Below are positions 1 to 10,809 of a DNA stretch of 10,809 bases, piece by piece. This DNA is from Myxococcales bacterium (GTDB taxonomy: Bacteria > Myxococcota > Polyangia > Fen-1088). The notes below the pieces were generated by a model that saw only the letters and a program-made list of their open reading frames with translations, made no database searches and had not been told where the DNA came from. The stretch spans positions 1-10,809 of the forward strand of contig PMLH01000426.1 in NCBI GenBank assembly GCA_003159055.1, read 5' to 3'. Both the position numbers and the translations under genes were made by a program. The first letter of the stretch is position 1, and the number at the start of each line of letters is the position of its first letter.

Positions 1-3000
1 CGCCCATGAAGAACGGCGCGGGATTGGGATCGCCGGGCGGCGGGGGCAGCGCCCCGAAGACGGGCGTCCAGTTGGTGACGTCGAAGAAGTGGCGTTGGGC
101 GAGCTTGAGGCCAGCGATGATCCTGGACGGCTTCGCGTCCGCGAGCACGTCGGTGGAATTGCGCTGCTTGCCCTCTTCTTGCGCGGGCAGCTCGAAGTGA
201 GTGCCGGCCACTGTGGGCGCGCGGCGATACGAGACGCTGGCGTCGGCCTTGTGGCGCAGCCACGGGACGACGAGCGCCCCTACGCCGATACCGACCACCG
301 GGCCGGCTGCGAGCCCGGCCAGAACCGGGCGTGGATTCGTGGAGCTCGACAGCGCGGCGCCGACGCCGCCGCCGAGCGCGGTCCCAAGCGCGCCGGCCAG
401 GCTCAGCCAGGCAAAGTCGCGCGGCTCGACCAGGTCGTAGTGTAGAGCACCGTATCCGGCGAGGAAGCCGACGTTGGCGGCGGCGAGCCCACCGAGCACC
501 ACCTCATGCGGGTCGCGATTGGCGAACGCACCGGTGAACGAACCCACCCAGCCGCCCCAGGCGGAAAATCCGCTCGCCACCAGCGCTTGCTGCGCATTCA
601 GCCCGTCGGAATCGGTGCTGCTTGCCAGGCCAAGCGAGGCACCGATTCCGGCACCAATCAGGGCCGAGCCGCCGAACTCACTTCGCGTGGTCGCCCGGCC
701 GGCCCATGCGAAGGCCAGACCCTCGGCGGCGCCAAGGCCCGCCCCGCCCAGCATGTAGAGGCCGCGATCGCCATCGAGCGGCGCGAGTGGCGAGACCAGC
801 GCGCCCAGGCCGAGTCCCGCCGCGGTTCCGCCGAGCAAGATGCCGACGCCGCGCTGGTCGTGCAGATTCTCGGAGAGCAGCACCGAGCCGCCGGCCAGCG
901 ATGCGCCAATCGCGCTTCCAACGCCAGCCATGCCGAGCCGCTGTCCGCTCGGGACGCCCGCCGTGCTGACCATCAGCGACAGTCCAGCCGCACCCAGGCC
1001 ACCCGCGGCCAAGCCGGCCACGCGGTCCGACGACTGGACTTCATCCGATGGCCGCACAAGGTACGGCAGCCATGCGCCGACCCACAAACCTTCGAGGCCG
1101 GCAAACGCGACGAGGCTGCGACTCTGTTCGAGATCGATCGATTCGTGCAAGGCGCCGCCGAGAACGAGTCCGGCGGTTCCGGCGCCGAGCATGCCCCACA
1201 CCGGCGCATCGGCGCGACGGCTGACCAGGCCCCCAACGCCGGCACCTGCGCCTGAGAAGACTGCATCGACCAGCAGTGCATTGCCGAGGAGATCGGAATC
1301 CACGTGCAACGACGGCAGAAGCGCCGTGGTCAAGATCGAAGCGCCGCCGGCGCCCGCGAGCAGCCCGCCACGCACCTTCATGCCGTCGACGTCGCCGAGC
1401 GAGCGGTGCCCGAGGACCGGCGCCCACGCGCCTGTCCATCCTCCGATGGCAGAGGCAGCCGAAACGACGAGCAGGTTGTCGACCTCGAAGTCGAGGCGCG
1501 GCCAAAGGCCGAGCCCGATGGCGAGCCCGGACGCCGCGCCCGCGACCACGCCGACGCGCGCGCCTTGGGTGCTGGTGGGATCCGGGTCGAGCAGAAGGCC
1601 GACGCCGGCGCCGGTCAGCGCACCGTCGAGCGCGCCAGCCATGCCGAGCACGAGGGTGCGTCCGCTGACGTCGGTGGCGTGCGCAAGTCCGGCGGCCGCG
1701 GCGGCGCCGCCGGAGAGACCGAGCAGCAGCCCACCTTCGGTACCGCGCTGCCAGCCGCCCCACTGCTTGTCGGCAAGAGTCGGGGCGAGCGCGCCGACCA
1801 CGCCACCCACGGCCGCGCCGGCTGCGCTTGCGGCCAAATCGCGCTCGGTCAGCGGCGATACGTGCTCGGCAGCGGCCGCAGCGGCGGCGCCCGCGAGCGC
1901 GCCAGCCAGGGTGCCCGCGGTGTCGCGACGAGGATTGACTGAGCTGGTCGTCATCACCAGACCTCGCCCGAAGAGCCCGCCGACCAGGGTTCCGCCGACG
2001 GTCACGCCGAGATCGCTCGGCCCCGGTGCGAAGTACTTCGACAGGACGAGGCCCGAGGCAAGCCCAGCCGACCCTCCGAGGAGCGCGCCGCCGAAGCGCT
2101 GCCGCGGGGACGCCTTGGAAACCTCGCCCGACGGATCGACCAGGCCCGCGAGGAAGATGCCTTCCGCGATTCCGATGCCAGTTCCCACGACCGCCAGTCC
2201 GGGCGCGGATTCGCCGAGTCCCTCGTGCAGGCGCAAGGGCCTTTCAAGAAGCAGGGAGCTCGCGAGTCCGGCGGAAACACCGGCGACGGCGCCGATGCGC
2301 GAGGGCTTGGAATAGTCGGTCGCCCAAAGCAGCCCGGTTCCCGTGCCCATACCCAGGCCCAGCACGGCACCGGCCGATGTGACGGTCACCGTCTCTGGCG
2401 AAGTGCCGGCAAGGTGGCTCAAGCTCGCTCCGGCAAGTGCGCCGCCGCCCACGCCGAGCAGCAAGCCACCCTCGATGGAACGCTGCCAGCCTCCCCAAGT
2501 CGCGCTTCCCAAGGTTGGCGCGAGCGAGCCCACGATTCCTCCATAGGTCATGCCCTCTGCGCCTGCCCCGAGATCGATCGAGGACAATGGCGCGCGGTGC
2601 TCGACCAGCGCAGCCGCGCCAAGTCCCACCAAGGAACCGGCCAGGGTTGCGGCGGTGTCCTTGCGGCCGCCCTGGTCGAAGACGGTCATGGTCAGGCCAC
2701 GCGCGGCCAGCGCGCCCATGCCGTCGCCGAGCACGACGGTCGCCAGGTTGCTCGGGCTTGGCGAATAGTATTTCGAGAGCAGAAGACCCGACGCCAATCC
2801 GGCCGAGCCGCCGAGCAACAGCCCACCCGCGATCGCGTGCGGCGACGCCTTTGAGACAAGACCTGACGGATCGGCGATGCCTGCGAGCAGCACGCCTTGC
2901 GCGGCGCCGAGCCCCGCGCCCACGAGCGTGAGGCTTGCGGCACTGTCGCCCAGGCCTTCGTCGAAACGCAGTCCGGTTCCGAGCAGCAGGGCGCCCGCCA

Positions 3001-5641
3001 TGCCGGCGCTGGTTCCAGCGAGCGCGCCGATGCGACTCGGTTGCGAGTAGTTGTCGCGCCACAGAAGACCGATTCCGGTGCCGATGCCCAAGCCAATCGC
3101 CGAACCGGCGGTCACGACGGCGACGTCCGCGCCGCTGGTCTTCTGCCAGTGCGAAAGCCCGGCCGCGGCGAACGCACCCGCCGGCAATCCCAAGAGCAGC
3201 CCGCCACGATTGCTGCGCGACCAACCACCCCAGTCGGAATTTGCCAGGCTGGGCACGAGTGCCCCGACCAGCGAGCCGTAGCCAGCACCGAGCGCCGCTG
3301 CACCCAAATCGGGCGCGCGGAGCTGTGAATAGTGTGAAAATGTAGCGCCCACGGCGAGGCCCGCCGCTGAGCCGACCAAGGTCCCCGCGAGCTCGGCGGT
3401 GCCCGTGGTGTCGCTGGCCAGCTTCGCCATGCCGATCCCGGCCGAGGCACCGAGCGCGGCGCTGGCGATGGTCACTGGATAGTCGCGGCCGTCGGGAGAG
3501 AATGAGCCCGAGGCGAGAAGACCCGCGATGCCGGCTGCGGTGCCGAGGGCCAGAATGCCACCTTGCATGCGGGGGCTCGAATGGTCGTTCGACGCGGCCA
3601 TGGCCAAAGCCCACGCGCTTGCGCCGTATGAGGCCCCGACCGCGCTCATGAGCGGTGCCTGCGTGCCTGGGTGAAGGTAGGGATAGGCGACGAAGCTGCC
3701 CACGCCGAGCCCGAGGCCGCCCACGCTAGCCCACAGCGGGCGCCGGGTGGTCTCGTTCGGCTCGGCGATCATGGCGGAGCCGAGGCCCATCAAGTTGCCT
3801 GCGAGAAGGCCGCTCATGGCAGACCAGGTTCGGCTCGGCGACACGTCGACAAACGGCGAAAGCGCTGCCGCGCCCAGGTAGCCAACCCCCACGCCAGCGA
3901 GCAACCCGCCACTCAGACGATCGCGGCGCGTGGCCGGATTGGTGTCGAGGCCGTAGGCGAGCATGCCGGCTGACCACGCGGTGGCCGCGCTCGCGGCGGC
4001 GGCCATCTGGACGTCATTTTTTGACAGCTGGATGTACCGACTGAGCACCGCCGAGGCGAGCATGGCCGGCGCGGTTCCATAGCCGACGAGAGGCGACACG
4101 CGCAGGGGCGTTCCTGGATCGGCAAGCACCCGCCCACCCGCTCCCGCCAAACCAGCACCGAGCACCAAGGTGTTGGCAAAGAGGATCTGCGACGGCGTCC
4201 AATCCCACCTGCGTGCGCCGAACACGCCCATGCCCATGCCGATGGATTCGCCGCCAACGAGAAGCCCCCACTTCAGCTTGACGTTGTCCGAGCCGGTGCC
4301 CGCCCACGCCATCAGACCGGCCAGGGTTCCCCAGGCGGTGCTGTTCGTGAACCAGAGCGCTTGCGAAGGGGATGGCCGTAGTCCGAAATGGGTCAGGCCC
4401 CACGCCGTGCCGCCGCCGATCACTGCCCCCGCCGAGCCGACCAAGAGCACGACGCCCGGGCTGCTTTGTTGCGCCAGCAGCGACAAGCCGCCACCCCACA
4501 CGCCACCCGCCACGAGCGAGGTGGCAAGGGTCAGCGCCGTGCCATCGCGTGGGGCCTTCGGTGCCGCTGGCTCCTCTTTTGGTTCGGCGGTGTCTGCGCT
4601 CGCCGTCGACGTCCCAGCGGATTCGCGCGGCGATACGCGCGTCTCGGCGATGGATGGCGTTTCCACCAGCGCCGGAACTGGATTCCACGCTGGTGTCTGG
4701 GTCGGCAACGGGGCGGTGCTGGTTGGATTGATCCGAACCGGAGAATTGGCCGCGCTCTCGTCCCCCGCCGCTTTGGTCCGACCGGCAAGTACGTTGCGTG
4801 CTTCCTCGGCCGCCCCGCTTCGCGTGCGATTGTGCGCGAGGTGTTCTAGCTGTGGCAATCCGGCGGGCCCAAGCTCCGCGAGGGCTCGCACCGCACCGAC
4901 CTGAACTTCGTCTTCGGCGCTGGCTCCGGCGGCGGCCGCCAGGGCGCCCGCCGCGCCGGTCACTTTGCAGGCGGCCAGGCCTTCAGCTGCCTGTGCGCGT
5001 GCGGTTACGGCTGCCGGGGGAAAGAGATCCATCAGCATGGCAGCCACGCTTTGCGCATCGCAATTGATCGCGGCCCCCTCCAGACCGACGACCAGCACCG
5101 GCGTGCCGTTGTCTGTCTGCAACGCGAGGCTGAGCTCGCGACCCGGGAAATGCCAGACCGCCTTCAGCGCGAGGCGACCCTGACCAAGCAGGGCCAACTT
5201 TTGCTCGTCATTCATCTTCTTGGCCCACGCGGGTTCGGTCGCGGGCGCCGTGGGAGGCCGGCGAAGACGCGTCTCGATCTCAGAAGCCCGTTGCAGGAAA
5301 GCTGCCACGCCCTGCGCGTAGGTATGACCCGGTAGGTGCGAAACCTCGAACACCTTGTCTATCCGGCGGTTGGCAATCCAGAACGTGGTGCTCTCTGGCG
5401 CACGCTCACCCGGCTTCACGAGGCCGCCCTGGCAGGCCAGGGCACTGGGCGGCGTCCCGAATTCCCGGCAGGTCAGCGATGATTTCGCGATGGTGTCGAG
5501 AACCGGGAGCGGCGTTCCGATATCCACGCCCAGCACGTCGGCGGGCGTGGGTTCGCCCGCAGCACACGGACGCGAGCTACCCACACTGACGAGAAGAGCG
5601 ACCAGCGAAGGAAATACGGATCCGACCAGAGAGCCGCGCAT
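1..5641 (-). CDS. Giant exported repeat protein with HEAT-like N-terminus and Gly/Ala-rich multi-segment membrane array (C-terminus off window)
   Basis: Function unknown. From the ATG at 5641 the frame stays open for 1,880 codons to the left edge, so the gene is 3'-truncated. Residues 1-28 look like a signal peptide (Arg2, hydrophobic 5-21, Cys-Ala-Ala before a probable cut). Residues 30-200 are soluble and unrecognised, with a Cys pair near 58 and 70. Residues about 205-290 are Ala/Leu-rich paired helices resembling HEAT repeats; 290-365 are a Pro/Ser/Thr/Glu linker. From residue 367 to about 1794, hydrophobic Gly/Ala-rich segments of 16-20 residues alternate with short polar or charged loops, roughly 45 in all, with many GxxxG spacings, GGLLLG and WGGW motifs. 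A soluble, more charged tail (about 1795-1880) follows. Anchor motifs at residues 1794, 366 and many between all fall in this frame. An in-frame GTG at 5662 is an alternative start; neither has a clear ribosome site. The segments may form a membrane-embedded glycine-zipper assembly, which is inference. Confidence 0.85.
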   Translation of the reverse strand, partial: MRGSLVGSVFPSLVALLVSVGSSRPCAAGEPTPADVLGVDIGTPLPVLDTIAKSSLTCREFGTPPSALACQGGLVKPGERAPESTTFWIANRRIDKVFEVSHLPGHTYAQGVAAFLQRASEIETRLRRPPTAPATEPAWAKKMNDEQKLALLGQGRLALKAVWHFPGRELSLALQTDNGTPVLVVGLEGAAINCDAQSVAAMLMDLFPPAAVTARAQAAEGLAACKVTGAAGALAAAAGASAEDEVQVGAVRALAELGPAGLPQLEHLAHNRTRSGAAEEARNVLAGRTKAAGDESAANSPVRINPTSTAPLPTQTPAWNPVPALVETPSIAETRVSPRESAGTSTASADTAEPKEEPAAPKAPRDGTALTLATSLVAGGVWGGGLSLLAQQSSPGVVLLVGSAGAVIGGGTAWGLTHFGLRPSPSQALWFTNSTAWGTLAGLMAWAGTGSDNVKLKWGLLVGGESIGMGMGVFGARRWDWTPSQILFANTLVLGAGLAGAGGRVLADPGTPLRVSPLVGYGTAPAMLASAVLSRYIQLSKNDVQMAAAASAATAWSAGMLAYGLDTNPATRRDRLSGGLLAGVGVGYLGAAALSPFVDVSPSRTWSAMSGLLAGNLMGLGSAMIAEPNETTRRPLWASVGGLGLGVGSFVAYPYLHPGTQAPLMSAVGASYGASAWALAMAASNDHSSPRMQGGILALGTAAGIAGLLASGSFSPDGRDYPVTIASAALGASAGIGMAKLASDTTGTAELAGTLVGSAAGLAVGATFSHYSQLRAPDLGAAALGAGYGSLVGALVPSLANSDWGGWSRSNRGGLLLGLPAGAFAAAGLSHWQKTSGADVAVVTAGSAIGLGIGTGIGLLWRDNYSQPSRIGALAGTSAGMAGALLLGTGLRFDEGLGDSAASLTLVGAGLGAAQGVLLAGIADPSGLVSKASPHAIAGGLLLGGSAGLASGLLLSKYYSPSPSNLATVVLGDGMGALAARGLTMTVFDQGGRKDTAATLAGSLVGLGAAALVEHRAPLSSIDLGAGAEGMTYGGIVGSLAPTLGSATWGGWQRSIEGGLLLGVGGGALAGASLSHLAGTSPETVTVTSAGAVLGLGMGTGTGLLWATDYSKPSRIGAVAGVSAGLASSLLLERPLRLHEGLGESAPGLAVVGTGIGIAEGIFLAGLVDPSGEVSKASPRQRFGGALLGGSAGLASGLVLSKYFAPGPSDLGVTVGGTLVGGLFGRGLVMTTSSVNPRRDTAGTLAGALAGAAAAAAAEHVSPLTERDLAASAAGAAVGGVVGALAPTLADKQWGGWQRGTEGGLLLGLSGGAAAAAGLAHATDVSGRTLVLGMAGALDGALTGAGVGLLLDPDPTSTQGARVGVVAGAASGLAIGLGLWPRLDFEVDNLLVVSAASAIGGWTGAWAPVLGHRSLGDVDGMKVRGGLLAGAGGASILTTALLPSLHVDSDLLGNALLVDAVFSGAGAGVGGLVSRRADAPVWGMLGAGTAGLVLGGALHESIDLEQSRSLVAFAGLEGLWVGAWLPYLVRPSDEVQSSDRVAGLAAGGLGAAGLSLMVSTAGVPSGQRLGMAGVGSAIGASLAGGSVLLSENLHDQRGVGILLGGTAAGLGLGALVSPLAPLDGDRGLYMLGGAGLGAAEGLAFAWAGRATTRSEFGGSALIGAGIGASLGLASSTDSDGLNAQQALVASGFSAWGGWVGSFTGAFANRDPHEVVLGGLAAANVGFLAGYGALHYDLVEPRDFAWLSLAGALGTALGGGVGAALSSSTNPRPVLAGLAAGPVVGIGVGALVVPWLRHKADASVSYRRAPTVAGTHFELPAQEEGKQRNSTDVLADAKPSRIIAGLKLAQRHFFDVTNWTPVFGALPPPPGDPNPAPFFMG
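1562..3739 (-). repeat. Three diverged tandem coding repeats of about 245 codons inside the giant gene
   Basis: Read on the minus strand, the units are 3739-3038 (234 codons), 3037-2303 (245 codons) and 2302-1562 (247 codons). The WGGW motif occurs at 3221-3232, 2486-2497 and 1751-1762, spaced exactly 735 bp both times. SRIGA begins units two and three. Units two and three also share DPSG, VSKASP, the GGSAGLASGL stretch, LSKY, RRD/RKD followed by TLAG, and APTL; by eye roughly half of their residues match. Unit one has drifted further and lacks about 11 residues. Each unit splits into halves of about 119-126 residues, both carrying GG(L/A)LLG-type motifs, and each half into two pieces of about 60 residues. 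Weaker copies continue on both sides: a GGLLAG-containing stretch near 3910, and an APVLG/GGLLAG half-unit near 1423. Synonymous sites differ widely, so the duplications are old. Confidence 0.8.
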
Positions 5642-5701
5642 GTCGCGCCCAAATGCAAGCACGAGGCCAGGTCGGAATCTGCTGTTTTCGCGGTGCCTGA
5701 A

Positions 5702-5719
5702 CTGCTGAAACGTCAGCAG
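5702..5719. promoter_or_regulatory. Inverted repeat CTGCTGA-N4-TCAGCAG, possible operator or leader hairpin
   Basis: Two perfect 7-base arms (5702-5708 and 5713-5719) flank a 4-base loop AACG. The repeat lies about 60 bp upstream of the giant gene's ATG, where a repressor site or a 5' leader hairpin would be plausible. It could also arise by chance at this length, and no T-tract follows it in either direction, so it is not a terminator. Confidence 0.3.
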
Positions 5720-5935
5720 CTGGTAAGTTTTCGACAGCCGGGCGCATGAAACTGTCGGCCGAAGCCTCGCTGGGCTGCTCTATCGCAGATAGGAAATCCC
5801 GTTATGCCCCGCCACCAGGACCAGGTCGCGTGCCTGCCCGGCCGAGTAGTCGTGGGTTGAGCCTGCGGCCCGAAAGACCGCGCTGCCTGGGCCATGGCGA
5901 ACGCCATCATCGATCAGCGGGCCATCGCAGGGGAC

Positions 5936-5964
5936 TTGGCGAACCGTGCCGAACAGGGGACAAT
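5936..5964 (+). promoter_or_regulatory. Candidate sigma-70-like promoter for the kinase gene
   Basis: TTGGCG (5936-5941) and GACAAT (5959-5964) each match the sigma-70 consensus at four of six positions and are separated by 17 bases. Transcription would begin near 5971 and give a leader of about 30 bases before the ATG at 6001, which supports that start over the longer frame. Matches this weak are common, so this is only a candidate. Confidence 0.28.
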
Positions 5965-6000
5965 GGAGGAGCATCGCCACGTCTCAACGCGACGAGACTC

Positions 6001-7353
6001 ATGTCCCCCTACGCGAACCTTCCTCGCAAAATCGTCGACTTCTTCCGAACGCCTGTGTTCCCGGAGGATTTCGAGAAGACCCGTGTTGCCCGTCTCCTCA
6101 ACAGGCTCGTTCTCATGGGCATCGCTATCTGTTTGGTGGCGTTGGGTGTGGGTGTTCCCTTCTTCTTTTCCTACAAGTTGATCTCTGCCGGATTGGTCTC
6201 GTTTTTTCTGCTCCTCTGCCTGCTCTCTTGGCTTGCCATGCGCAGACGGAACCTTCTGGTAGCGTCGGCCTTTCTGGTCGTGAGCGTCCACCTGATTGTT
6301 ATTTCGAACACCATCGCCAACGGCGGTATCGAGTCGAAAGACAACCTGTTCTACGCGGTCCCAGTCGTCATCTCTCCGCTCTTGCTGCCATACCGTTGGG
6401 CCGTGCTGTCGGCAGTGGCGGCGTTGTTCGAGCTGAGCATCTTCGCCGTCTTGGGCTGGCTTGGTTGCCAGATCCCGAAGTACCTGCCTGGTGTCCCGCT
6501 TGGCGTGTGCTTTCTGGGCCTCCTCATTCTGGCGCTCCTTTACCAGGCGGTCCGACTGTCGGTGGACGGGTGGACGCGTGCCGTCCACCTGGCCCAGCAG
6601 GAGCTCGGCGAGCGCAAACGAACGGAAGCGGAGCGGGACAGGCTGAGGGAGGCGCTTTTCCAGGCCCAGAAGATGGAGTCGCTTGGACGCATGGCGGGCA
6701 GCGTGGCCCATGATTTCAACAACCTTCTGCTGGTGGTCACCGCGAATTTGGACCAGGTCAAACACCTCCCGAACCTCGACGACGACCTGAAGAACGACCT
6801 TGCCCAAACCGAGGACGTGGTGAGAAGTGCCTGCAGTCTCAACCGCAGCCTGATGGATTTTTCCAAGAGGCGCGAATTGCGCCTCGAAGTGTTGGACTTG
6901 GACCTCCTGGTAGCAGAGGCGTTTCCCGTCTTGGTCCAACTGCTCGGAAAACAGGTTCGCCTGGAGGCCTTCCCGGCAGGTGGTGGAACGGCGATTCGGG
7001 CGGACAGGACTGGGATGGTCCAGGTGCTGCAGAACCTCGTGGTGAACGCTCGCGATGCGATGGAGGAAGGGGGCTTGGTCACACTGCGAACGCGGGTTAC
7101 CAAGATCGAGCAGGATCGCCAAGAGGCAAGCGCGGGAACCTACGTGCAGCTCAGCGTCCGAGATACTGGTTGTGGCATGACCCAGGCGACGCGGGAGAGA
7201 ATCTTCGAGCCCTTTTTCACCACCAAGATGCGAGGGACCGGATTGGGACTGGCTACCGTGTTCGGTGTGGTCAAGCAGCACGGCGGGATGATCGAGGTGG
7301 ATTCTGAGGAGGGAAAGGGCACGGAGTTCCGCATCTTCCTGCCCTGCGCCTGA
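6001..7353 (+). CDS. Six-TM sensor histidine kinase (orphan)
   Basis: A 450-residue inner-membrane histidine kinase that should autophosphorylate a histidine and pass the phosphate to a response regulator not encoded here. Six hydrophobic segments lie at about 36-56, 60-80, 85-105, 116-131, 133-155 and 165-184, with very short loops, so any signal is probably sensed within or near the membrane. The loop NGGIES before segment 4 resembles a motif I recall from other six-TM sensor kinases. A charged coiled-coil linker (about 195-230) leads to the H-box with VAHDFNN (His237). The ATPase domain is complete: N-box Asn349 in LVVNARDAM, G1 box DTGCGM (Asp388), F-box EPFFTTK (403-409) and G2 box GTGLGL (412-417). 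No receiver domain is fused. Start at 6001 was chosen because the upstream in-frame extension is low-complexity Arg/Pro-rich; the ribosome site is weak. The frame ends 93 bp before ahpC. Confidence 0.9.
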   Translation: MSPYANLPRKIVDFFRTPVFPEDFEKTRVARLLNRLVLMGIAICLVALGVGVPFFFSYKLISAGLVSFFLLLCLLSWLAMRRRNLLVASAFLVVSVHLIVISNTIANGGIESKDNLFYAVPVVISPLLLPYRWAVLSAVAALFELSIFAVLGWLGCQIPKYLPGVPLGVCFLGLLILALLYQAVRLSVDGWTRAVHLAQQELGERKRTEAERDRLREALFQAQKMESLGRMAGSVAHDFNNLLLVVTANLDQVKHLPNLDDDLKNDLAQTEDVVRSACSLNRSLMDFSKRRELRLEVLDLDLLVAEAFPVLVQLLGKQVRLEAFPAGGGTAIRADRTGMVQVLQNLVVNARDAMEEGGLVTLRTRVTKIEQDRQEASAGTYVQLSVRDTGCGMTQATRERIFEPFFTTKMRGTGLGLATVFGVVKQHGGMIEVDSEEGKGTEFRIFLPCA

Positions 7354-7426
7354 AGTGGATTCAAGACAAACGCCCCGGCGTAGGCGCAACCGGGATCGGG
7401 GTGACGGCATCCAACCTGCACAACCC

Positions 7427-7434
7427 AAGAGGAG
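7427..7434 (+). promoter_or_regulatory. Ribosome binding site of ahpC
   Basis: AAGAGGAG is a near-ideal Shine-Dalgarno sequence, but it sits 12 bases before the ATG at 7447, slightly farther than usual. It supports this start, which also gives an N-terminus (MASIINSQIPEF) that matches the AhpC family. Confidence 0.6.
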
Positions 7435-7446
7435 CCTCCCCCGAAC

Positions 7447-8013
7447 ATGGCAAGCATCATCAATTCGCAGATTCCGGAATTCAGTGTGCAGGCGTATCAC
7501 GACGGTAAGTTCAAGACCGTCAGCAACGCGGACCTGAAGGGAAAATGGGCCGTCTTCTTCTTCTACCCGGCCGATTTCACCTTCGTGTGTCCGACCGAGC
7601 TTGGCGACATGGCCGACAAGTACGACAAGCTCAAGAGCATGGGCGTCGAGGTCTACTCGGTCAGCACGGACACCCATTTCGTGCACAAGGCCTGGTACGA
7701 CGCTTCGGAGACCATCAAGAAGATCAAGTTCCCGATGCTCGCCGATCCGACGGGAGCACTGAGCCGGGCCTTTGGCGTGTACATCGACGCCGAGGGATTG
7801 GCCTACCGCGGAAGCTTCGTTGTGAACCCCGAGGGCAAGATCAAGATCGCCGAGTACCACGACAACGGCATCGGACGGAACGCCGAGGAGCTGGTGCGCA
7901 AGATCCAGGCAGCGCAATTTGTGGCCAGCCACGACGGCGAGGTTTGCCCGGCCAAGTGGACGCCCGGCGCCGCGACGCTGAAGCCCGGCCTCAACCTGGT
8001 CGGCAAGATCTGA
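7447..8013 (+). CDS. ahpC: Alkyl hydroperoxide reductase subunit C (typical 2-Cys peroxiredoxin)
   Basis: A cytosolic peroxidase of 188 residues, almost the same length as Escherichia coli AhpC, that reduces hydrogen peroxide, organic hydroperoxides and probably peroxynitrite. The peroxidatic cysteine is Cys48 in the motif FYPADFTFVCPTE, with the catalytic Pro41 and Thr45 of the PxxxTxxC signature. The resolving cysteine is Cys167 in GEVCPAKW, followed by the typical C-terminal tail ending LVGKI. The GGLG-type sensitivity loop is represented by DNGIGRN (about 139-145), and the C-terminal tail is of AhpC1 type, so the enzyme may be inactivated by excess peroxide; that is inference. It is followed 88 bp later by ahpF, its reductase, with a stem-loop between them. 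No OxyR or PerR gene or obvious binding site is seen. Confidence 0.97.
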   Translation: MASIINSQIPEFSVQAYHDGKFKTVSNADLKGKWAVFFFYPADFTFVCPTELGDMADKYDKLKSMGVEVYSVSTDTHFVHKAWYDASETIKKIKFPMLADPTGALSRAFGVYIDAEGLAYRGSFVVNPEGKIKIAEYHDNGIGRNAEELVRKIQAAQFVASHDGEVCPAKWTPGAATLKPGLNLVGKI

Positions 8014-8034
8014 GCAACACCGCGTTGCCTCTCT

Positions 8035-8065
8035 GCCGATCCGGGTTCCCCCAGCCCGGATCGGC
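8035..8065 (+). terminator. Strong hairpin between ahpC and ahpF (terminator or processing element)
   Basis: Perfect 11-base arms GCCGATCCGGG (8035-8045) and CCCGGATCGGC (8055-8065) enclose a 9-base loop and start 21 bases after the ahpC stop. What follows is only mildly T-rich (GCTTGCTTTCC), so as an intrinsic terminator it would be leaky. It could trim or protect an ahpC transcript and make AhpC far more abundant than AhpF, as the enzymes' use suggests. Confidence 0.65.
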
Positions 8066-8101
8066 GCTTGCTTTCCCCTGACCAATTCCCGACGGAGCGT
8101 C

Positions 8102-9649
8102 ATGCTGGACCAAGGCATCAAGGACCAACTCAGAGACCATTTTGCGAAGCTGTCGTCGACCATCACGCTGGCTCTCTTCAAGAGCGACCATCCCAAGCAG
8201 TCCGAATTGCAGGAACTGCTGGCCGATGTGGCCTCGTGCGGGGACAGGCTCGCTCTGGTCGAAATGCCTGAGAAAGTCGCGGGCGTTCAGTTCGACCTGC
8301 TTTCTGGCGGCAAGCAGACCGGCATTCGCTTTCGCGGGTTGCCCGGCGGTCACGAGTTTACCTCGCTCGTCATCGCAATCCTGAACAGCGACGGCAAGGG
8401 CAAGTTGCCCGACCAAGGCGTCCAGCGCAGGGTGAAAGCCTTGAGGGGCCCCGTGCGCCTGTACACCTATGTCTCGCTCAGCTGCACCAACTGCCCGGAC
8501 GTGGTTCAGGCGCTCAACCAAATGGCGCTGATTCACCCGGATTTCCAGCACACCATGATCGACGGCGAGCTCGCCGAAGGTGACATCGCGTCGCTTGGCA
8601 TTCAAGGCGTGCCCGCGGTCGTGAGTGGAAATTCCATTCTGCACGTCGGTCGCGCCAATTTTGCCGAGCTGCTGGAGACGCTGGAGGGTGCGCTCGGGCG
8701 CGAAGCGCTCGATGTGAGTGCGCAGCCGCCGCAAGAGTACGACGTGGTCGTGCTGGGCGGCGGGCCTGCGGGTAGCTCGGCTGCGATCTACAGCGCACGC
8801 AAGGGCCTGAAGACCGCGCTGGTCGCACAGCAGCTGGGTGGCCAGGTGCAAGAGACGGTCGGCATCGAGAACCTGATCTCGGTTCCCTACACCGAGGGTC
8901 GTCGGCTGGCCGCCGATTTGGAAAAGCACGTGCGTGCCTACGCCATCGACCTCTTCGACAACCGCAAGGTCGAACAGATCCTCGACCATGGCAAGCAAAA
9001 GGAGCTTCGCTTGCAGGGCGGCGAGATCTTGCGCACGAGCGCGCTGATTCTCGCCACCGGCGCCAAGTGGCGCGAGCTGGGGATTCCCGGCGAGAAGGAC
9101 TACCTCGGCCGCGGCGTCGCGTTCTGTCCCCACTGCGACGGCCCCTTCTACAAGGGCAAGCGGGTGGCGGTGGTAGGCGGCGGCAATTCCGGGGTTGAGG
9201 CCGCCATCGATTTGGCCGGCATCTGTGCCCAGGTCACCCTGGTCGAATTCGCCGAGCAGCTGAAGGCGGACGAGGTTCTGGTGCGCAATCTGCGCGGTTT
9301 GCCCAATGTTGCCGTCATCACCAACGCCCGCACCACGCATGTGGTGGGCAACGGCCAGACCGTCACGGCGTTGCGCTACCAGGATCGGACGAGCGAAAAG
9401 AGCCACGAAATCGCGCTCGACGGCGTGTTCGTGCAAATCGGCCTCGTGCCGAACAGCGCGGTCGCCAAGGACCTGGTCAGCATCAACCGGATGGGTGAAA
9501 TCCTCATCGACGAACGCTGTCGCACCAGCCGCGCGGGCATCTACGCCGCTGGCGACGTCAGCAGCGTGCCCTTCAAACAGATCGTCATCGCCATGGGCGA
9601 AGGCGCCAAAGCCGCCCTCACAGCTTTCGAAGATCGCATACGCGCGTAG
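8102..9649 (+). CDS. ahpF: Alkyl hydroperoxide reductase subunit F (NADH:peroxiredoxin disulfide reductase)
   Basis: A cytosolic FAD flavoprotein of 515 residues (Escherichia coli AhpF has 521) that moves electrons from NADH through FAD and two disulfides to oxidised AhpC. The N-terminal tandem thioredoxin-like domain (about 1-200) carries the redox pair C128-TN-C131 in SLSCTNCPDVVQALN and the cis-Pro loop GVPAVV. The FAD-binding motif is VVVLGGGPAG (215-224). The thioredoxin-reductase-like active site is C342-PH-C345 followed by DGP. The NADH-binding motif is VAVVGGGNSG (355-364), and the closing FAD motif GIYAAGDVS lies near the C-terminus. All catalytic residues are present. GGAG five to eight bases before the ATG gives a good ribosome site. 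It follows ahpC by 88 bp in the same direction and is convergent with the next gene, with 73 bp between the two stops and no clear terminator there. Confidence 0.97.
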   Translation: MLDQGIKDQLRDHFAKLSSTITLALFKSDHPKQSELQELLADVASCGDRLALVEMPEKVAGVQFDLLSGGKQTGIRFRGLPGGHEFTSLVIAILNSDGKGKLPDQGVQRRVKALRGPVRLYTYVSLSCTNCPDVVQALNQMALIHPDFQHTMIDGELAEGDIASLGIQGVPAVVSGNSILHVGRANFAELLETLEGALGREALDVSAQPPQEYDVVVLGGGPAGSSAAIYSARKGLKTALVAQQLGGQVQETVGIENLISVPYTEGRRLAADLEKHVRAYAIDLFDNRKVEQILDHGKQKELRLQGGEILRTSALILATGAKWRELGIPGEKDYLGRGVAFCPHCDGPFYKGKRVAVVGGGNSGVEAAIDLAGICAQVTLVEFAEQLKADEVLVRNLRGLPNVAVITNARTTHVVGNGQTVTALRYQDRTSEKSHEIALDGVFVQIGLVPNSAVAKDLVSINRMGEILIDERCRTSRAGIYAAGDVSSVPFKQIVIAMGEGAKAALTAFEDRIRA

Positions 9650-9722
9650 GGGATCCCGACGCGCAGGTGGTCCAGGGTTAGCCGTCCCGCCTTGGCCCAA
9701 TTCAGAACAGTGATCGGTGTCC

Positions 9723-10809
9723 TCAGTAGTCGCACCCTGGAGCAGAAACCGAATCTGGGCAGGCCCAGCACTGCATGCCGACCTTGGTTCCAGGGGGAAG
9801 CTGCCCTTGGCTGATCTCCGCGGCCGTGCGAACGATGCTTATCACTTGTCCGGTCCTGGGACACCTGCTTGCGTCGTAGGAGAGTTGCCAACAGTCGGTG
9901 GTTGTGGTGTCCGGTGTGGCGCCGGGCGGGCACAGCGGCAGTCGGTCCGACTCCTGGTAGATGACCTTGTTGGTTTGGGGATCCACCGTGGGCACGCGAT
10001 AGGCGACACGGCAATCCGGCTGAAGTCCCGGCGTCGACGGATCGACATCGAGCAGCTTGGCGTCGACACACAAGTTCTGCAGCTTCTTGGCAATGGAGTC
10101 GCCAATGCCCTTCATGGCGTCGGTGAAGTCCGGCTCGCAGATACTGTACTTGAGGCCATTCTCGGCAAACTCGTCGACAAAGGCCGACATGCGCAAGCCG
10201 CCCGTGGCGCCCCAGCCCGAGGCGTCCGGGTCGTACCCGCCAGAGGTCTTCGGCATATGGTTCGGGTCGTAGCAGACCGGCCAGTAGTCGTAGATGACTG
10301 GGTGATCGGCATCCGAGGTGTTCGGGTTGGGCACGAAGTCGATCTTGTATTTCGCGTTTGCGAAATCCGGCTTGCCGTCGGCGCCGTTGCGAGGCCAGCC
10401 GAAGATGCCGGCGACCAGGATCCTGTCGGCGGACTGGTCGCCCTTCAGCACCTTGATCTCGTCGGCCAGCTTCTTGACGCTCTTGAGGGGGCTGCAGCTG
10501 GTGGGGCCGGAGGTGTCGGTGAGTGTGTTGCCATCGGTGACATTCGGGCAGGAATCCGTCCTTGCCGAGCAGCTCGCGAAATCCGTCTCGAATCTGGACG
10601 TGGTCGGGTAGCCAGGTGGCGTGACCTCCGACAGGCTTGCGCCACTGCACTGGTGTCCGCGGGTGGCACAACGGAGGCTGGCGGACTCGCCGCGCAACTC
10701 GGGCTTGTCGCCGAACATGCCGTCGTTGGTGGCAGCCGAACAGTCATCCTCGTCGCTCAAGAAGACAAGGCCAAGGTAGGCGCTTGGCCGAAGCATTTGC
10801 CGTTGGTTG
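9723..10809 (-). CDS. VWA-like Cys-rich exported protein, C-terminal part (5' end off window)
   Basis: The frame ends with TGA at 9723-9725 and stays open to the right edge, where residues NQRQ precede the first ATG (10796); the true start is therefore almost surely outside the window. The visible 361 residues begin with LRPSAYLGLVFLSDEDDCSA, a hydrophobic strand followed by an acidic cluster that resembles the late strand of a von Willebrand A domain, where a metal-binding Asp usually sits. After it come 16 cysteines in all (spread through the protein, including CWAC and a final CDY), few in the hydrophobic strand, and many Asp, Pro and Thr residues. That pattern fits a disulfide-bonded protein outside the cytoplasm. 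I recall similar proteins as common in myxobacteria, often as lipoproteins, but the signal sequence is not visible. The rest matches no domain I can name, and substrate or role are unknown. Confidence 0.75.
   Translation of the reverse strand, partial: NQRQMLRPSAYLGLVFLSDEDDCSAATNDGMFGDKPELRGESASLRCATRGHQCSGASLSEVTPPGYPTTSRFETDFASCSARTDSCPNVTDGNTLTDTSGPTSCSPLKSVKKLADEIKVLKGDQSADRILVAGIFGWPRNGADGKPDFANAKYKIDFVPNPNTSDADHPVIYDYWPVCYDPNHMPKTSGGYDPDASGWGATGGLRMSAFVDEFAENGLKYSICEPDFTDAMKGIGDSIAKKLQNLCVDAKLLDVDPSTPGLQPDCRVAYRVPTVDPQTNKVIYQESDRLPLCPPGATPDTTTTDCWQLSYDASRCPRTGQVISIVRTAAEISQGQLPPGTKVGMQCWACPDSVSAPGCDY

What the first reader, a model, noticed from the sequence alone, without database searches (positions are those of the whole stretch)
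1..5641. A >1,880-codon uninterrupted frame encoding an apparently undescribed giant membrane-array protein
The minus-strand frame from 5641 to the left edge contains no stop. Sites checked at 262, 1423, 1555, 1762, 2296, 2497, 2824, 3031, 3205, 3232, 3733, 3910 and 4546 all lie in the same phase. The translation has coherent order: signal peptide, soluble domain, HEAT-like stretch, linker, then about 45 Gly/Ala-rich hydrophobic segments. Few bacterial proteins combine a cleavable signal peptide with this many potential membrane spans; no known transporter or porin has this pattern as far as I can tell. Because it is cut by the edge, and other frames here also carry long open stretches on both strands, it is easy to mis-annotate.
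Basis: partly seen in the sequence, partly recalled or inferred. Interest (0 to 1): 0.78.

Follow-up and report, generated by a model that had tools for sequence, protein, structure and literature searches.

The report
Giant exported glycine-zipper helix-array protein
This looks like a real, conserved but undescribed bacterial protein of about 1,890 amino acids that carries an export signal and is predicted to form some 48 glycine-rich, membrane-length helices, perhaps a single-chain array in the cell's outer membrane rather than an ordinary inner-membrane transporter.

Summary
In detail: one open minus-strand frame, ATG at 5641 to the left edge, with a coding substitution pattern. It is nearly complete: a database copy identical over the window's 1,880 residues has six more. 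Sequence and AlphaFold give a signal peptide, alpha/beta domain, HEAT helices, disordered linker, 48 helices spaced 30 residues apart and a short tail. The middle is built from 245-residue, eight-helix modules (2-5 copies in 45 family members).

No Pfam, NCBIfam or PHROGs model describes the array in this protein; the family includes 77 other search hits, among them a distant HEAT group of about 2,200 residues, and 600-780-residue cousins.

New point: none of the 48 helices reaches the hydrophobicity that inner-membrane controls show. In 90 family proteins 1 of 3,453 segments passes the threshold, against 51 of 98 (E. coli) and 54 of 206 (carrier genomes). Glycine-zipper helices of SlyB and YiaD sit in the family's range. 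Positive-inside bias is smaller than in 7 of 7 controls, but present in the window's clade. I favour a concatenated SlyB-like outer-membrane array; location and function are inferred (0.43). An inner-membrane array is the main rival (0.29).

The parts
2..5641 (-). giant exported helix-array gene (1,880 of 1,886 codons)
5558..5641 (-). signal peptide, residues 1-28, signal peptidase I type (no lipobox); exact cleavage site not determined
   Evidence: sequence; of the 78 hits, the 55 of at least 1,700 aa that start M, V or L (P0002 included): 42 have a strong h-region, 0 a lipobox
5072..5554 (-). alpha/beta domain, residues 30-190, mostly pLDDT above 90; invariant columns begin only at residue 208 in the 17-sequence alignment
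4748..5056 (-). HEAT-like helices (six), residues 196-298
4544..4747 (-). disordered Pro/Ala/Thr-rich linker, residues 299-366
   Evidence: pLDDT under 50 for residues 299-352
236..4540 (-). array of 48 Gly/Ala/Leu-rich helices, residues 368-1802, mean spacing 29.96 residues
2828..3562 (-). 245-aa module 1 (8 helices), residues 694-938
2093..2827 (-). 245-aa module 2, residues 939-1183; 49% identical to module 1
1484..2092 (-). 245-aa module 3 (diverged, partial match), residues 1184-1386
2..235 (-). C-terminal tail, low confidence, then two short strands (residues 1861-1864 and 1876-1879); the end (..GVSGGLR) lies 6 residues beyond the edge
   Evidence: similar strand-like ends by eye in the short cousins

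Best explanation
An exported, non-lipidated, single-chain array of about 24 glycine-zipper helical hairpins. Shown or strongly predicted: signal peptide, alpha/beta plus HEAT head, flexible linker, 48 membrane-length helices in 30-residue steps, growth by duplication of a 245-residue eight-helix module, short strand-like tail. Inferred: because none of its helices is hydrophobic enough to be held firmly by the inner-membrane translocon, the chain is delivered to the outer membrane. There it packs through Gly-xxx-Gly faces into a helical belt or patch, with the HEAT head in the periplasm as a docking platform. It would work like SlyB rings (stabilising outer-membrane proteins or patches poor in lipopolysaccharide), but as one covalent chain whose size is set by module number.
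For: Hydrophobicity cap (lower = more hydrophobic): all 48 helices score 1.76 to 6.88, median 3.56. In 90 family proteins 1 of 3,453 segments is below 1 (0.95, in P0019), against 51 of 98 in 12 E. coli inner-membrane proteins, 12 of 12 having at least one, and 54 of 206 in 24 inner-membrane domains from four carrier genomes, 23 of 24 having at least one (these 24 are the matches handed out as loci, of 30 + 90 listed). SlyB 3.4 and 5.8, YiaD 3.1 and 3.6. Eight of eight short cousins have none below 1. Positive-inside ratio per loop residue 1.15 in all 17 aligned members, 1.68 in the window protein, against roughly 2.4 or more in 7 of 7 E. coli controls. Glycines conserved in 90% or more of 17 members are most often four apart (45 pairs; 17 at eight, 13 at two, 11 at five, 3 at three). 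The Pfam glycine-zipper 2TM model, which also matches SlyB, hits the array over its cut-off in carriers G002 and G005 and just under in G003, with no other match at E <= 0.001 in those genomes; G001 has none. Weak hits (E 0.0018 to 0.019) to glycine-zipper models in some relatives. No lipobox. Helices. SlyB rings around outer-membrane proteins: review PMC13067283, one passage read.
Against: No localisation data. The window protein itself does not match PF05433. Lys/Arg are commoner in the loops that an inner-membrane topology with periplasmic N-terminus would put in the cytoplasm: 39 against 21 in the window protein (per residue 0.111 against 0.066, permutation p 0.0005), clear in its close clade (6 members, ratio 1.43, p 0.002), slight elsewhere (8 members, 1.10, p 0.09). 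In the window protein acids do not follow this bias (1.42 against 1.57 per loop). No pathway is known to me for delivering a 48-helix non-lipoprotein to the outer membrane. AlphaFold pTM is 0.47-0.48 and the five models' mean pLDDT ranges from 61.8 to 78.7 and 71.5 to 81.7, so the global arrangement is undefined. Sequence periodicity alone does not decide helix against strand. The outer-membrane comparison rests on two proteins; OsmB and YcfJ gave no scorable segment. The hydrophobicity scale was recalled and the weighting is mine.
Confidence: 0.43

Rival explanations
1. A polytopic inner-membrane protein with a cleaved signal peptide: 48 marginal helices inserted cooperatively, alternate loops in the cytoplasm, HEAT head in the periplasm; a scaffold, or a very large channel or transporter.
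For: Membrane-length helices; Lys/Arg bias in the expected direction, 39 against 21 in the window protein, p 0.0005; Foldseek's weak list for the C-terminal model is mostly transporters (none at E <= 0.001).
Against: Hydrophobicity cap against two inner-membrane control sets; the charge bias is below that of 7 of 7 E. coli controls and fades in distant members.
Confidence: 0.29
2. An exported protein that is not a stable membrane spanner: a periplasmic or secreted lipid-binding, matrix-forming or self-assembling hydrophobic polymer.
For: Signal peptide, marginal hydrophobicity, repeat growth, 24% glycine and 21% alanine in the segments.
Against: Regular 30-residue spacing of polar residues with apolar stretches of about one bilayer thickness; conserved specific positions such as E465, E1640 and a W-G-x-W motif.
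Confidence: 0.15
3. Low-complexity repeat expansion with little selected function.
For: Gly/Ala-rich composition and tandem modules.
Against: Position 3 > 1 > 2 substitution pattern, more than 100 invariant columns in 17 sequences, one array locus in each of six carrier genomes.
Confidence: 0.03
4. Artefact: wrong frame or chimeric assembly.
For: Other frames are also long; high GC.
Against: Full-length relatives on other contigs and codon-position pattern.
Confidence: 0.01

Closest known systems
SlyB / glycine zipper 2TM family (Pfam PF05433; PDB 7ojf, 7ojg)
   Same: Exported, glycine-zipper segments of similarly low hydrophobicity; PF05433 matches the array of two relatives over cut-off.
   Different: SlyB is a 155-aa lipoprotein reported to form rings by oligomerising; this is one 1,886-aa chain with 48 predicted helices, no lipobox and a HEAT head; the window protein itself does not match PF05433.
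Gly-zipper_Omp / YMGG-like Gly-zipper (PF13488, PF13441), e.g. YiaD
   Same: Glycine-zipper segments of similar hydrophobicity in YiaD; weak matches in some relatives.
   Different: YiaD is 219 aa with two scored segments; the window protein does not match these models.
HEAT_2 repeat proteins (PF13646), alphaRep
   Same: Residues 196-298.
   Different: Only a small part of the chain; the array is something else.
Major facilitator and other multi-helix transporters
   Same: Many antiparallel helices; weak fold matches.
   Different: No significant match, no strongly hydrophobic helices.

Membership tests
Glycine zipper 2TM / SlyB family (PF05433) | PF05433 score over cut-off (24.2 bits) in the window protein | tested here: not met
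   No PF05433 hit for P0001 at E <= 0.1 or P0002 at E <= 1; relatives G002 24.9 and G005 24.7 bits pass, G003 23.1 does not, G001 none
Glycine zipper 2TM / SlyB family (PF05433) | Lipoprotein signal (lipobox) | tested here: not met
   0 of 55 long family proteins, the window's copy P0002 included; 23 shorter or otherwise starting hits left out
Glycine zipper 2TM / SlyB family (PF05433) | Gly-xxx-Gly spacing in segments of low hydrophobicity | tested here: met
Glycine zipper 2TM / SlyB family (PF05433) | Outer-membrane location, ring-shaped oligomer | not testable with these tools
   needs fractionation and cryo-EM
HEAT repeats (PF13646) | HEAT helical pairs | tested here: met
HEAT repeats (PF13646) | Pfam curated cut-off in the window protein | tested here: not met
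   15.0 bits against 27.7; P0028 passes with 31.7, P0026 misses with 27.0
Inner-membrane multi-helix transporters (e.g. MFS) | Fold match to solved transporters | tested here: inconclusive
Inner-membrane multi-helix transporters (e.g. MFS) | Some strongly hydrophobic helices, as in the controls | tested here: not met
   0 of 48 below 1; controls
Inner-membrane multi-helix transporters (e.g. MFS) | Strong positive-inside bias | tested here: inconclusive
   present in the window protein (ratio 1.68) but below 7 of 7 controls

The most novel reading that the evidence does not exclude
A new kind of outer-membrane protein: neither beta-barrel nor lipoprotein, but a single polypeptide that lays dozens of alpha-helices into the outer membrane as a modular glycine-zipper belt, lengthening in eight-helix steps, with a periplasmic HEAT head. 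It would imply an undescribed delivery route for large alpha-helical outer-membrane proteins in Myxococcota and, by one Nitrospirae-labelled relative, perhaps beyond.
Probability: 0.33. Interest if true: 0.88.

Novelty: new variant of a known kind. Interest (0 to 1): 0.6.

Why it matters
Integral outer-membrane proteins are thought of as beta-barrels, with few alpha-helical exceptions (recalled). A family with 12 to perhaps 64 membrane-length helices (the upper figure inferred from module number in P0003), an export signal and a ceiling on helix hydrophobicity would make it testable whether bacteria can place large alpha-helical assemblies in the outer membrane, and how they avoid trapping them in the inner one. 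The ceiling is also a simple search rule for further unannotated proteins of this kind.

Tried and rejected
Beta-strand array: conserved glycines show period-2 as well as period-4 signals, which first suggested long strands. The sequence test did not settle it: the helix band beat the strand band in 29 (volume), 23 (glycine), 26 (entropy) and 29 (hydropathy) of 48 segments. I took helices because both AlphaFold models give them throughout the array.

Conserved operon: of four neighbours (kinase, AhpC, AhpF, VWA-like protein) searched in the eight loci L001-L008 (seven assemblies; L004 and L008 are one), only the VWA-like protein recurs well (L001, 50% identity) and a kinase fragment once (L005, 34%); several loci are short. 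No synteny seen.

Literature: full-text searches listed no paper that from title or abstract start describes such a protein; lists were capped (15 of 540, 15 of 204, 8 of 9), and one paper was opened, PMC13067283, one passage. Absence from this library is not absence from print.

Promoter and terminator scan of 5500-6100 found nothing. Self-BLAST gave no off-diagonal rows and was replaced by my own diagonal scoring. The first genome-contig scan with the single protein found no relative; the alignment scan found eight loci.

Caveats on my own tests: the hydrophobicity scale (Hessa 2005) is recalled; the weighting and the threshold of 1 are mine, the threshold chosen after and then applied to new controls. 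One search counts only minima below 5 and skips the first 40 residues; its 90 proteins are P0002-P0091, that is all hits, and include close relatives, fragments and the distant HEAT group, so segments are not independent. The 12 E. coli proteins were picked by me. One search used the matched stretch only. One search kept all 17 rows although three (P0022, P0023, P0026) carry an extra module inside one counted loop; one search repeats it without them (ratio 1.22). In one search the control ratios take whichever loop class is richer, which favours the controls, and their helices are hydrophobicity minima that may miss one. Identities between window and P0003 modules are out of register and not used.

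Full report
OBSERVATION. The minus-strand frame is open from 5662 (GTG) to the left edge; the ATG at 5641 gives the MRG start shared by P0004-P0009 and 1,880 codons. Under the frame's own position-specific composition a stop-free run of this length has probability of about 2e-9. GC by codon position is 0.72/0.59/0.79, and against relatives mismatches are commonest at position 3, then 1, then 2 in 5 of 5 comparisons. The frame codes. It is almost complete: P0002, identical over all 1,880 residues, has six more, and the six other close relatives printed end the same way.

MODULES. Residues 694-1105 match the stretch 245 residues later without a gap for 412 residues at 52% identity. One module holds eight helices. 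A module model finds 2 to 5 copies in the 45 family members longer than 1,700 aa that it hits (28 have 3, 7 have 2, 6 have 4, 4 have 5); copies and length correlate at 0.69. P0003 (2,409 aa) has five, three of which are 76-84% identical, so duplication looks recent there. Some of that variation could be assembly error in metagenomes.

FAMILY. The protein search gave 78 hits, one of them the window's own copy, from a capped list of 7,975 candidates. Eight loci with record titles come from seven metagenome assemblies: Myxococcales (5 loci), Deltaproteobacteria (1) and Proteobacteria (2); one distant relative is labelled Nitrospirae. A profile of nine distant HEAT proteins of 2,117-2,294 aa aligns along the whole array (1,445 columns, E 5e-90). 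Shorter cousins of 598-782 aa with 12-15 apolar segments align with about the last 15 helices (431 columns, probability 99.8%, E 4e-28) and have a strand-like end. Their profile matches 34 of 188 genomes drawn from the phylum; residues 1420-1799 of the giant match 8 of 188; the whole protein matches 4 of 20 relatives of one carrier, 3 of them strongly. These counts include the carrier itself, and completeness of the assemblies was not reported. No NCBIfam or PHROGs model fits the window protein, Pfam adds only the weak HEAT match, and its neighbours are not conserved in the loci held.

KEY TEST. If the helices were ordinary inner-membrane spans, at least some should be strongly hydrophobic. 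With a Hessa-type scale (recalled values, my weighting, lower is more hydrophobic), the 48 helices score 1.76 to 6.88, median 3.56, none below 1. Among 90 family proteins, 1 of 3,453 scored segments is below 1, at 0.95. In 12 E. coli inner-membrane proteins 51 of 98 are, and all 12 have one. To allow for GC-rich composition I took 24 matched domains (12 Proton_antipo_M, 12 MFS_1; those handed out as loci, of 30 and 90 matches) from four carrier genomes: 54 of 206 are, and 23 of 24 domains have one. The window's own histidine kinase has segments down to -2.0. The glycine-zipper helices of SlyB (3.4, 5.8) and YiaD (3.1, 3.6) lie in the family's range; OsmB and YcfJ gave nothing scorable. The short cousins show the same ceiling in 8 of 8. 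So the family avoids strong spans, as a protein passing through the inner membrane should.

SUPPORT AND STRAIN. Of 55 long family proteins 42 have a strong signal-peptide core and 0 a lipobox. Conserved glycines lie mostly four apart (45 pairs). PF05433, which also matches SlyB, hits the array over cut-off in two carrier genomes and just under in a third, and nothing else in those genomes at E <= 0.001; a fourth carrier has no match, and the window protein has none. Against: Lys and Arg are commoner in the loops that an inner-membrane topology would place in the cytoplasm. In the window protein it is 39 against 21 (ratio per residue 1.68, p 0.0005), in its close clade 1.43, in eight other members 1.10 (p 0.09), in all 17 1.15. 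Seven of seven E. coli inner-membrane controls scored the same way have ratios of about 2.4 or more. So the bias is real in this clade, points to the rival, but is smaller than in true inner-membrane proteins.

MECHANISM. Steps predicted from sequence and model: export, HEAT head on a flexible linker, Gly-zipper hairpins, 48 helices (an even number, so head and tail on one side). Steps inferred: cleavage, passage to the outer membrane, packing into a belt or patch, stabilising proteins or lipids there. [quoted passage not shown] Here some 24 hairpins come in one chain. It works like, but is not a member of, that family: the lipobox is absent and the window protein fails the family cut-off.

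VERDICT. Real, conserved, undescribed in the resources searched, and structurally unusual. Outer-membrane array 0.43, inner-membrane array 0.29, exported non-spanning assembly 0.15.

Noticed in passing
7447-9649 +: AhpC-like peroxiredoxin (7447-8013) followed by AhpF-like disulphide reductase (8102-9649), an ordinary peroxide-defence pair (names by domain content).
   Followed up: partly
5746-7353 +: Membrane histidine kinase with HATPase_c domain and five hydrophobic segments (four scoring below 1), divergent from the giant gene; the true start is probably later than the listed ATG.
   Followed up: partly
9723-10808 -: Cys/Asp-rich protein (motif SDEDDCSA), cut by the right edge, without Pfam, NCBIfam or PHROGs match; 50% identical to a protein in L001 15688-17205 that I call VWA-like by recall.
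   Followed up: partly
1-10809: GC falls from about 0.70 over the giant gene to about 0.60 over the kinase and redox genes.
   Followed up: no
L024, L030-L034, L036, L037: Short 598-782-aa cousins with 12-15 segments, differing N-terminal heads (HEAT in some, others not) and a conserved W-G-x-W element; their profile matches 34 of 188 sampled genomes of the phylum.
   Followed up: partly
L002, L003, L006 genomes (G002, G003, G005): The only PF05433 (SlyB-type) matches at E <= 0.001 in these assemblies fall inside the giant array; no separate SlyB was found, though the assemblies may be incomplete.
   Followed up: no
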